Source: Catillopecten margaritatus gill symbiont
Lineage (GTDB): Bacteria > Pseudomonadota > Gammaproteobacteria > PS1 > Pseudothioglobaceae
Reading direction: 5' to 3'
DNA length: 64,000 nucleotides
NCBI GenBank assembly: GCA_037956075.1
Contig: CP138327.1
Coordinates: 186,001-250,000, forward strand
Position 1 is the stretch's first letter, and every line of letters starts with the position of its first letter. The translations under genes were made by a program, and so were the position numbers. The notes under the pieces were generated by a model. The model saw only the letters and a program-made list of their open reading frames with translations. It made no database searches and was not told where the DNA came from. Shown here one piece after another: positions 11,662 to 14,270 of this stretch.

Positions 11662-12146
11662 ATGAAAACAGATAAAATAAAACAAGAATGTATAAGAATT
11701 GAAGAAGACGCTTTATACTCTTCAAAAGGGCATTATAACGCCTCTAACTTTTGGTCTAAAGTGCATTATGGGATTGGATTACCGATGGTTGTTTTATCTG
11801 CTTGGACTGGACTTGATGTATTTAATTATGAATCTCGGTGGGCAGGATATTTAGCAATAATTGTAGCAACATTAGCCTCATTACAAACTTTTATTAAATC
11901 GGATGATAAATCACTGCAACATAAAAATTCTGGTGATGAATTTAACGGTCTCAAGAATGAAGTTCGCAGATTAAGAGAAATAAAAACCGATGCAATAGAA
12001 GAAAGTCAGTTAATCAAAAACTAGACTTATTAGCAGATAAATATAGTCAATTAACCAGGGTGTCTTTGCAAATTCCTGAAAAATCTTATAAAAAAGCAAA
12101 AAAAGACATAGAAGATGGTCAAAATAATTATAAGGCAGATAAATAA
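11662..12146 (+). pseudogene. SLATT-domain two-TM CBASS effector, frameshifted near its 3' end
   Basis: The first frame encodes 120 residues: a charged N-terminus, two hydrophobic segments (about residues 34-53 and 61-78), and a coiled helical region ending IEESQLIKN at a TAG (12022-12024). The -1 frame then continues without interruption as LDLLADKYSQL, then IPEKSYKKAKKDIEDG, to a TAA at 12144-12146 that overlaps the CD-NTase ATG by one base. The pattern fits SLATT domains (SMODS and SLOG-associating 2TM effectors), which are predicted pore-forming effectors in CBASS-type immunity. One missing A in the A5 run at 12016-12020 would explain the break. Ribosomal frameshifting or a read error are alternatives. 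Intact length would be about 161 residues. Confidence 0.75.
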
Positions 12147-13348
12147 TGGGAATATCAAGCTACCTCCACAATAAAGCTACTGAAGCAGTTATTCGAGACA
12201 CTGAAAAAGAATCTATCAAAAAATCAATTAAAGCTATCAAAGAACGTATAGACAATTATTTTGATGATGTTGAAGGGCATTTTATATTTGGCTCTTATAC
12301 AAGAAATACTATCCTTCCTAGAGAGATAGACGAACGCTCAGATATTGATTATATGGTTGTATTCGAAGACAACGATTACACGCCACAAACCTACTTAAAC
12401 AAACTCAGAAAATTTGTTGAAAAATATTATGCCAAATCTGAAATAAAACAATCTCACCCAGCTATTCAGCTGGAACTAAATCATATTACCTTTGAGCTAG
12501 TGCCAGCCTTAGATAAAGTATCTTTTTTTGAGAATCATATCTCTTACCAAATCCCTTCTAAATCGGATGATATTGATGAATGGATTGACACCAATCCCAA
12601 TGACTTCAACAAAGAATTAACAGAAGCAAATCAAAATAATAACTCACTAATAAAGCCATTAATCAGATTATTGAAATATTGGAATGCTAAAAATAATTAC
12701 GTTTTTGAGTCTTTTTTATTAGAAAAAGATATAGTTGCAACGAGTGGTTTTTGGTTTACAGGTGGCAAAAAATTAAAAGATTATTTTTACCAATATATTA
12801 AATCTATGGATTCTGATAATTTTGAAGCCCAATGGAAGCGAGACAAAATCCATGAAATTCAAGAAAGGGTAGAAAATGCTATAGAGAAAGAATCAGAAGA
12901 ACCGCATCAAGAAGCGGAAAATATTATTCGTAAAATATTTAAAGATAAGGTTGTTAGTTTTAGTGAAAATTCCTTAGCATTACCTTATGTAAAAAAACCA
13001 AAATGGGATATGGTGAACTACTATACTGCTCAAATAAATGCCACAGTTGATGGAAGTAAATTTAACTCAGGTGATTTATTAGAAAAGCATTGTAGTCTCA
13101 TATTTCATGTCATCACTCAGGCAGAAGCACCTTTTGATGTTTATTGGCAAGTTGTTAACACAGGTGAAGAGGCAAGGATGGCAGGATGCTTAAGGGGTGA
13201 TATTTATCAAGCAAAAACTGCAGGAAGGGGTGGATTAAACTGGAAAGAAAGAACTTTATATGCAGGAACCCACTGGGTTGAATGCTTCATTGTGAAGGGC
13301 AATCAATGCGTCGCTAGAAGCAACGGGTTTACTATTCGTATTCAATAA
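12146..13348 (+). CDS. CBASS cyclic-oligonucleotide synthase: CD-NTase (SMODS) with C-terminal AGS-C sensor domain
   Basis: The 400-residue protein has the nucleotidyltransferase motif GSYTRNT (Gly49-Ser50) followed by SDIDYMVVF with Asp66 and Asp68. A third acidic residue is probably Glu117 in FELVPALD, where Asp is common. A helical middle follows. From about residue 277 comes the AGS-C domain (KPKWDMVNYYTAQINA, then VYWQVVNTGEEA, CLRGDIY, and HWVECFIV), predicted to sense ligand. Family knowledge: such enzymes make cyclic di- or trinucleotides on phage infection and activate an adjacent effector, here the SLATT protein. No Cap2/Cap3-type genes are next to it, giving a minimal two-gene layout. 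The catalytic gene looks intact. Confidence 0.88.
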   Translation: MGISSYLHNKATEAVIRDTEKESIKKSIKAIKERIDNYFDDVEGHFIFGSYTRNTILPREIDERSDIDYMVVFEDNDYTPQTYLNKLRKFVEKYYAKSEIKQSHPAIQLELNHITFELVPALDKVSFFENHISYQIPSKSDDIDEWIDTNPNDFNKELTEANQNNNSLIKPLIRLLKYWNAKNNYVFESFLLEKDIVATSGFWFTGGKKLKDYFYQYIKSMDSDNFEAQWKRDKIHEIQERVENAIEKESEEPHQEAENIIRKIFKDKVVSFSENSLALPYVKKPKWDMVNYYTAQINATVDGSKFNSGDLLEKHCSLIFHVITQAEAPFDVYWQVVNTGEEARMAGCLRGDIYQAKTAGRGGLNWKERTLYAGTHWVECFIVKGNQCVARSNGFTIRIQ

Positions 13349-13454: not shown

Positions 13455-13527
13455 TTATTTGATACGAGGAGACGCTACCCATTTATTTCCTCTTATTTGA
13501 TTAATAAATAGTTATGCATTCAAAAAG

Positions 13528-13555
13528 TTGCAAAAGGCACACATTGTGCTAAAAT
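13528..13555 (+). promoter_or_regulatory. Cassette-borne promoter with internal inverted repeat
   Basis: TTGCAA (13528-13533) and TAAAAT (13550-13555) are spaced by 16 bases. Between them lies the inverted repeat GCACA-CAT-TGTGC (13537-13549), a plausible autoregulatory operator for the antitoxin. The -10 box ends six bases before the toxin ATG, so the mRNA may be leaderless. Confidence 0.55.
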
Positions 13556-13561
13556 ATCGTC

Positions 13562-13840
13562 ATGAAACATTTTGCTTGGAATTCTGATAAGAATTATGAA
13601 CTCATTGAAAAAAGAAAAATATCTTTTGAAAGGGTTGTTTCTCATATTGAAAAATACGGATATTTAGATATTGTCAAACATCCCAATATAACGAAATACC
13701 CCAGTCAAAAAATGTTTATATTAAATATTGAGGATTATGCTTACCTTGTGCCTTTTGTTGAATCGGATGAGGTATTTTTTCTAAAAACCATTATTCCAAG
13801 TCGCAAAGCCACTAAAAAATATATTGAGGAAAAATTATGA
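13562..13840 (+). CDS. brnT: BrnT-family (DUF497-like) toxin
   Basis: A 92-residue protein reads FAWNSDKNYELIEKRKISFERVV and ends in LKTIIPSRKATKKYIEEKL, a pattern of BrnT-type ribonuclease toxins. In BrnT/BrnA systems the toxin gene comes first, as here. The stop overlaps the next ATG by four bases (ATGA). It lies inside the cassette-like element, 45 bases after its left edge. Confidence in the exact subfamily is lower than in the toxin call. Confidence 0.75.
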   Translation: MKHFAWNSDKNYELIEKRKISFERVVSHIEKYGYLDIVKHPNITKYPSQKMFILNIEDYAYLVPFVESDEVFFLKTIIPSRKATKKYIEEKL

Positions 13841-14109
13841 AGCAAAACCTAAACAAAGAGGATAAAGAAATTCTTGATTCTTACGACAATAACGAATGGG
13901 TCTCTATTAAAGAATCTGAAGATATAGTTGACTATAAAGCTATAGCAAAAAATACCTTTAAGAAAAATAAAAGAGTTAATATCAGAATTTCCGAGATGGA
14001 TTTAACGCTTATACAAGAAAGAGCTTTAATTGAGGGTTTGCCGTATCAAACACTAATGTCTAGTGTTTTACATAAATATGTGGCTGGTAGATTTCGTGAA
14101 AATGCATAA
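13837..14109 (+). CDS. BrnA/CopG-like antitoxin
   Basis: A 90-residue protein whose second half (NIRISEMDLTLIQERALIEG, then PYQTLMSSVLHKY) fits a ribbon-helix-helix DNA-binding domain of CopG-type antitoxins. The acidic N-terminal part would wrap the toxin. It is coupled to the toxin gene by an ATGA overlap. The TAA stop lies inside the first attC box GCATAAC, the usual compact arrangement in integron cassettes. Confidence 0.75.
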   Translation: MKQNLNKEDKEILDSYDNNEWVSIKESEDIVDYKAIAKNTFKKNKRVNIRISEMDLTLIQERALIEGLPYQTLMSSVLHKYVAGRFRENA

Positions 14110-14154
14110 CAAATTATTCCAGCCGACCGCTAACGCATCGGCTGAATTCAAGCG
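14104..14154 (+). other. attC-like recombination site (59-base element, left part plus G)
   Basis: Outer box GCATAAC is at 14104-14110. Inner stem CAGCCGA (14120-14126) pairs with TCGGCTG (14138-14144), and GAATTCAAGCG closes the site. Spacing and word order match classical aadA-type attC sites. The outer right box is split: its TTATGC portion is now at 13512-13517. The hairpin alone could be read as a terminator, but it is separated by 16 bases from the T run at 14161. Confidence 0.7.
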
Positions 14155-14270
14155 ATACTCTTTTTTTTTATTCTTTCTTTATTGATTTCCTCCGAGACAC
14201 ACCTTGATTTACAAATTAATTACTTCAACCCTTAAGTAAAAAAAAGGGGAAACTCAGCAGTCTATTTTTA

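What the first reader, a model, noticed from the sequence alone, without database searches (positions are those of the whole stretch)
13511..14155. A toxin-antitoxin gene cassette inserted by integron-type recombination outside an integron
Seen directly: GTTATGC at 13511-13517; GCATAAC at 14104-14110 overlapping the antitoxin stop; inner stem CAGCCGA/TCGGCTG; and AAGCG at 14150-14154 followed by ATACTC instead of TTATGC. Joining the two ends recreates a complete attC-like site with 7/7 complementary outer boxes. Removing the cassette joins G to ATACTC, giving a GAT target. Established knowledge: integron integrases cut between G and TT of the outer right box and can insert cassettes at secondary GNT-type sites, and toxin-antitoxin pairs are common cassettes. 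Inference: a free cassette was integrated here with no attI or integrase nearby.
Basis: partly seen in the sequence, partly recalled or inferred. Interest (0 to 1): 0.85.

Follow-up and report, generated by a model that had tools for sequence, protein, structure and literature searches.

The report
Solitary integron toxin-antitoxin cassette outside integron
A two-gene toxin-antitoxin cassette, of the kind integrons shuffle, sits alone in a small marine-symbiont-like genome that has no integron integrase; it joined the chromosome at a short stretch resembling an integron docking site, and at least eight other places in the same genome hold similar stray cassettes.

Summary
A covariance model built only from recombination sites (attC) of related genomes scores the site at 14104-14160 at 71 bits (E about 8e-16 per genome). 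The cassette (13512-14154, 643 bp) carries a BrnT-like toxin, a CopG-type antitoxin and a promoter-like sequence. The 1.54-Mb genome has no integron integrase, yet holds 12 attC matches at 9 scattered places; 8 of 83 family genomes have a complete integrase. One refinement: the target was not just any GNT triplet. Its last 11 bases (TTAATAAATAG) are those of the attI beside one relative's integrase; TTAATAAATAGTTA occurs seven times in 12 genus genomes, all seven at integron-type boundaries. Further upstream the site is not attI-like, so it is best called an attG-type secondary site with an attI-like half. A base-exact empty site could not be tested, because the relatives held are too diverged; at gene level three relatives lack the insert. 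Secondary-site (attG) insertion and integrase-less attC clusters are known. The natural example, the shared half-site, and an attC type found mostly in marine animal symbionts of unrelated lineages are the new parts.

The parts
13501..13511 (+). left half of the target site, TTAATAAATAG; crossover follows G 13511
   Evidence: same 11 bases at the attI beside the G006 integrase and at other cassette boundaries; weight-matrix rank 1 of about 128,000
13512..14154 (+). integrated gene cassette, 643 bp
   Evidence: ends given by GTTATGC/GCATAAC complementarity and the attC model match
13512..13517 (+). TTATGC, cassette 5' end; completes the R'' box (GTTATGC) in the circular form
   Evidence: exact complement of R' at 14104-14110
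13528..13555 (+). promoter-like sequence inside the cassette (TTGCAA, 16 nt, TG-TAAAAT)
   Evidence: consensus match only, count in the region not above shuffles
13537..13549 (+). small palindrome GCACA-CAT-TGTGC in the promoter, possible antitoxin operator
   Evidence: read; function inferred
13562..13840 (+). BrnT-like RNase toxin, 92 aa
   Evidence: Pfam BrnT_toxin E 2e-05, below curated cut-off; homologues at 36-58% identity in 10 other family genomes
13837..14109 (+). CopG-type antitoxin, 90 aa, overlapping the toxin by 4 bp
   Evidence: Pfam CopG_antitoxin E 2.7e-06, above cut-off
14104..14154 (+). attC recombination site as integrated (R' 14104-14110, inner stem 14120-14126/14138-14144, ends at G 14154)
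   Evidence: 71.0 bits with model R1 over 14104-14160; fold
14155..14160 (+). ATACTC, right half of the target, in place of TTATGC

Best explanation
This is an integron gene cassette carrying a BrnT/CopG-type toxin-antitoxin pair. An integron integrase, now absent from the genome, recombined the folded bottom strand of the cassette's circular attC (GCATAAC...AAGCG^TTATGC) with a chromosomal site reading TTAATAAATAG^ATACTC. The left half of that site matches one of the family's attI types; the rest does not, so it is an attG-type secondary site. The insertion replaced the cassette's R'' box by GATACTC, which removes the outer stem of the attC hairpin and should make excision poor. Expression is inferred to come from the cassette's own promoter. 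The toxin is inferred to be an RNase held in check by the antitoxin, which is also inferred to bind the promoter palindrome. Shown: cassette anatomy, attC identity, matching ends, absence of intI, the shared half-site. Inferred: that an IntI did it, the order of events, and the function of the pair.
For: attC model from relatives only: 71.0 bits, E 7.7e-16; no match at E<=0.01 in 56 of 83 family genomes, so the model is specific. Cassette ends 7/7 complementary. Rebuilt attC folds, chromosomal form loses the R stem. Complete integrases in 8 of 83 family genomes, three of them same genus, with attI next to attC cassettes. Eleven other attC matches, at 8 other places in this genome; five of its seven TAAYAAATAGNT sites are cassette 5' boundaries. 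TTAATAAATAGTTA: 7 in 12 genus genomes, all at integron boundaries, against 4 for the reversed control. Gene level: cca and the PDDEXK gene lie side by side without insert in G003, G005, G010.
Against: No base-exact empty site: nearest relatives are about 70% identical here and their intergenic DNA does not align. No integrase in this genome, so the enzyme must have been lost or come from outside. The 14 bases upstream of the R-like box do not resemble attI (14% of window positions score as well), so the length of the recognised target is uncertain. The weight-matrix sites were partly grouped by eye, so its rank overstates the case; the 14-mer count does not depend on that grouping.
Confidence: 0.87

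Rival explanations
1. The cassette is the last remnant of a former integron at this very place: a true but decayed attI whose intI and other cassettes were deleted.
For: The left half-site equals that of an attI. The genome has one canonical attI without intI at 448.2 kb, so loss of intI probably did happen. Integrase-less attC clusters are usually read as decayed integrons (PMC9024848).
Against: Only about 11-12 bases are attI-like; the 14 bases upstream, with the conserved TATAAT of that attI class, are not. No intI remnant was found by the TIGR02249 search. The right side reads G^ATACTC, while nearly all other attC in this genome are followed by G^TT. The place is an otherwise ordinary spot between cca and a nuclease gene that is empty in relatives.
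Confidence: 0.1
2. The block was brought in by other means (homologous or illegitimate recombination together with the CBASS operon upstream), carrying along a piece of an integron array.
For: An apparent CBASS operon (SLATT-type 2TM effector, SMODS/CD-NTase cyclase) lies directly upstream, and the whole 2.6 kb is absent between cca and the nuclease gene in several relatives. Both stretches are AT-rich (31-33% GC against 40%).
Against: The cassette ends coincide exactly with integrase crossover points, and the boundary carries the half-site seen at other cassettes. The one CBASS relative in the family (G004, 69%) lies elsewhere and has no cassette after it.
Confidence: 0.03

Closest known systems
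Integron cassettes inserted at attG / secondary sites (Loot et al. 2024, Nat Microbiol 9:228, cited in PMC12444791 and PMC12901181; GNT consensus in PMC4618277)
   Same: Cassette joined to chromosomal DNA outside attI, at G^NT, by attC recombination.
   Different: Natural single insertion in a genome without integrase; the target shares an 11-base half with a family attI. The primary paper was not held, so its attG consensus was not compared.
CALIN elements (attC clusters lacking integron-integrase; PMC9024848)
   Same: attC sites without intI; CALINs are tabulated for Bathymodiolus septemdierum and B. thermophilus symbionts (PMC10295459, Table 1).
   Different: Here a single attC, below IntegronFinder 2.0's default of two, so such a site would not be reported by default.
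Toxin-antitoxin cassettes of chromosomal integrons (PMC11023631, not read here; from general knowledge)
   Same: TA pair within one cassette.
   Different: Alone on the chromosome, not in a large array, so stabilising an array cannot be its role here.
BrnT/BrnA and related BrnT/CopG type II toxin-antitoxin pairs
   Same: Gene order toxin then antitoxin with 4-bp overlap, BrnT-like toxin, ribbon-helix-helix-type antitoxin.
   Different: Toxin scores below Pfam's cut-off, and the antitoxin matches CopG_antitoxin rather than BrnA.

Membership tests
integron attC site | R' and R'' boxes complementary, inner L stem, conserved layout | tested here: met
   7/7 R boxes in the circular form, 71 bits with model R1
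integron gene cassette | ORF(s) followed by attC, with a 5' end complementary to the R' box | tested here: met
   the 5' end is TTATGC, exactly complementary to its own R' (TTRTRY rather than the classical TTRRRY, as in many sites of this family)
integron gene cassette | mobilised by an integron integrase | not testable with these tools
   needs a recombination assay
complete integron | intI with adjacent attI | tested here: not met
   no intI over cut-off in the genome
CALIN | at least two attC in a cluster without intI | tested here: not met
   one attC in the window; places at 472, 1285 and 1393 kb do have two
attG / secondary-site insertion | cassette joined at G^NT outside attI, empty site restored by its removal | tested here: inconclusive
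   junction reads AATAG^ATACTC; no base-exact empty site available
attI copy | attI-like sequence upstream of the R-type box as well | tested here: not met
   R-like half matches; upstream 14 bases do not
BrnT toxin | match to PF04365 over its curated cut-off | tested here: not met
   25.2 bits against 34.5, E 2e-05, over the whole domain
CopG antitoxin | match to PF12441 over its curated cut-off | tested here: met
   28.5 bits against 28

The most novel reading that the evidence does not exclude
A community-level cassette economy: unrelated bacteria living in marine animals (mussel, clam and sponge symbionts, an intranuclear parasite) exchange cassettes with one attC type, and reduced genomes without integrase keep solitary defence-type cassettes at dispersed attI-half-like sites, inserted by an integrase present only at times or supplied by another cell or virus.
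Probability: 0.3. Interest if true: 0.7.

Novelty: new member of a known kind. Interest (0 to 1): 0.5.

Why it matters
Insertion of cassettes outside integrons is known mainly from laboratory recombination assays. Here a whole family of small genomes offers natural examples with readable junctions, so the sites that an integrase really uses in nature can be derived and tested. It also shows that single-cassette insertions, which default integron searches skip, may carry defence-type genes (toxin-antitoxin, restriction enzyme, Abi-like) in reduced symbiont-like genomes.

Tried and rejected
Rfam has no family that hits the site (the family RF03531 tried was a guess and is not attC). Counting GTTATGC alone says nothing. 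A base-level empty site was sought through DNA searches of the flanks in 76 and 83 relatives: only the nuclease gene and one distant CBASS copy align. The toxin's homologues in relatives are not in attC cassettes as far as the loci reach; the paralogue at 1284.6 kb lies next to attC remnants but on the opposite strand. A viral-contig search for the toxin found nothing by peptide pattern, although one attC-bearing viral contig does hold a 45% relative. The idea that the left flank is a full duplicated attI was rejected. Two family searches of further integrase-like loci failed on coordinates and were not pursued.

Full report
Observation. The cassette would be 13512-14154, 643 bases. The two ORFs are 13562-13840 (92 aa) and 13837-14109 (90 aa). 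Pfam finds a weak BrnT toxin match (E 2e-05, below cut-off) and a CopG antitoxin match (E 2.7e-06, just above cut-off); NCBIfam and PADLOC name neither.

The site is an attC. A DNA search of relatives with the surrounding sequence returned, besides the neighbouring nuclease gene, dozens of matches of about 25-60 bases confined to the putative attC, in this genome and in its relatives. I aligned 23 of them from relatives only and built a covariance model. The structure has paired changes in both helices and collapses when the pairing is slid by one base. The window's site, not in the training set, scores 71.0 bits, E 7.7e-16 per genome. The model gives no match at E<=0.01 in 56 of 83 family genomes, which serves as a negative control. 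The rebuilt bottom strand folds better than 200 of 200 shuffles; as integrated, with GATACTC instead of GTTATGC, the outer stem is lost.

No integrase here, but in relatives. The whole genome (1,542,691 bases, one contig) has only Xer-like hits to the integron integrase model (85 bits or less, cut-off 265). Eight of 83 family genomes have a complete integron integrase, three of them in the same genus (G002, G004, G006). Next to most of these integrases lies an attI of the form AAGGAATATGTCCTTATA.TAATAG^TT, and G006 has a second type, TATAATTATAACCTTAATAAATAG^TT.

The cassette is one of many. The genome has 12 attC matches at 9 places (200.1, 334, 448.7, 472, 711.7, 962.7, 1285, 1393-1394 and 1540.5 kb). 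At 448.2 kb a canonical attI is followed by a cassette but no integrase: most likely the platform whose intI was lost (inference). Genes in or next to the other sites include a BsuBI/PstI restriction enzyme, an HNH nuclease, an Abi_C-like and a RelB-like protein; for the 334, 472 and 1393 kb places the 5' boundary was not fixed, so that cargo is tentative.

The landing site. I looked for the 5' boundary of each cassette as the core site complementary to its own R'. Boundaries that are neither inside arrays nor at the first attI type mostly end in AATAAATAG or close to it. A weight matrix of such sites with this one excluded ranks 13496-13511 first among about 128,000 positions of the window (16.4 bits against 12.5 for the next). 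Some of these sites were grouped by eye, so I also used a test that does not depend on the grouping: the 14-mer TTAATAAATAGTTA occurs seven times in the 12 genus genomes, and all seven lie at integron-type boundaries: this one, the attI beside the G006 integrase, cassette starts in G006, G011 and G007, and two places in G004 followed by an attC-like remnant. In this genome five of seven TAAYAAATAGNT sites are cassette starts (the raw count itself is not above the reversed control). The 14 bases further upstream, which in several of the other sites hold TATAAT, do not resemble them here. So the target shares the R-like half of attI and nothing more: an attG-type site.

Empty site. Between cca and the nuclease gene, relatives G003, G005 and G010 have no insert, and G006 has another small gene; these three are thus empty at gene level. 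A base-exact comparison was not possible: the nearest genomes are about 70% identical over the nuclease gene and their intergenic DNA does not align. This remains the main gap.

Mechanism. Shown: cassette anatomy, attC, complementarity of the ends, boundary half-site, missing integrase. Inferred: a cassette circle with attC GCATAAC...AAGCG^TTATGC recombined, through its bottom strand, with TTAATAAATAG^ATACTC. The insertion broke the R stem, so the cassette is probably locked in. The cassette has a promoter-like sequence of its own (TTGCAA-16-TAAAAT; a consensus match only) containing a small palindrome, in line with self-regulated TA pairs; this would free it from the need for a promoter in the left flank, which the TATAAT-bearing sites may provide for other cassettes. 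The toxin is inferred to be an RNase.

Known and new. Secondary-site insertion of cassettes (attG; Loot et al. 2024, not held here, cited in PMC12444791 and PMC12901181) and integrase-less attC clusters (PMC9024848) are known, TA cassettes in integron arrays are known (general knowledge; PMC11023631 listed, not read), and CALINs in Bathymodiolus symbionts have been tabulated (PMC10295459). New here are a natural single insertion with a readable junction, the shared half-site across loci and species, and the distribution of the attC type. An exact 24-mer of it, searched in some 85,000 species, gave 54 stretches, mostly from mussel, clam and sponge symbionts of different gammaproteobacterial lineages plus the mussel parasite Endonucleobacter; a few are in Marinomonas, a Sulfurospirillum MAG, a Neomarinimicrobiota MAG and unclassified MAGs. 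Some of these may be binning errors. I therefore file the finding as a new member of a known kind with moderate interest.

Noticed in passing
L168-L221: An exact 24-mer of this attC type occurs almost only in marine animal symbionts of unrelated lineages (Bathymodiolus, vesicomyid clams, sponge Methylococcales, Spongiihabitans, a sponge Cycloclasticus) and in the mussel parasite Endonucleobacter.
   Followed up: partly
L222, 4822-4880 and 6974-7590: An IMG/VR viral contig carries the same attC type and, about 2.1 kb away, a toxin-antitoxin pair whose toxin is 45% identical to the window's; a ribonucleotide reductase part with intein lies on the same contig.
   Followed up: partly
L083:5325-5407 (-) and L085:5373-5455 (-): Two cassette loci at 712 and 1286 kb share an 83-base left flank at 95% identity, also found at 73-79% in G006 and G003: a second attI-like element duplicated without integrase. 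How it was copied is unexplained.
   Followed up: partly
L229 and L084 (1542.2 and 961.9 kb): Two further loci share TATATAATTATGACTATAAYAAATAG before the cassette, like the attI beside the G006 integrase, with a promoter-like TATAAT at constant distance.
   Followed up: partly
L081 around 3737: Canonical attI with a cassette but no integrase, close to cbbQ/cbbO-like genes: likely the former integron platform of this genome.
   Followed up: partly
window 11662-13348: Apparent CBASS operon (SLATT-type 2TM effector and SMODS cyclase) directly upstream of the cassette, in an AT-rich insert between cca and a PDDEXK nuclease gene.
   Followed up: partly
window 13550-13562: The -10-like box ends only 7 bases before the toxin ATG, so the transcript may be leaderless if that start codon is right.
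   Followed up: no
L214 around 5285: A Sulfurospirillum MAG holds this attC type with the left boundary TTTAATAAATAG, the same half-site; transfer across phyla or a binning error.
   Followed up: no
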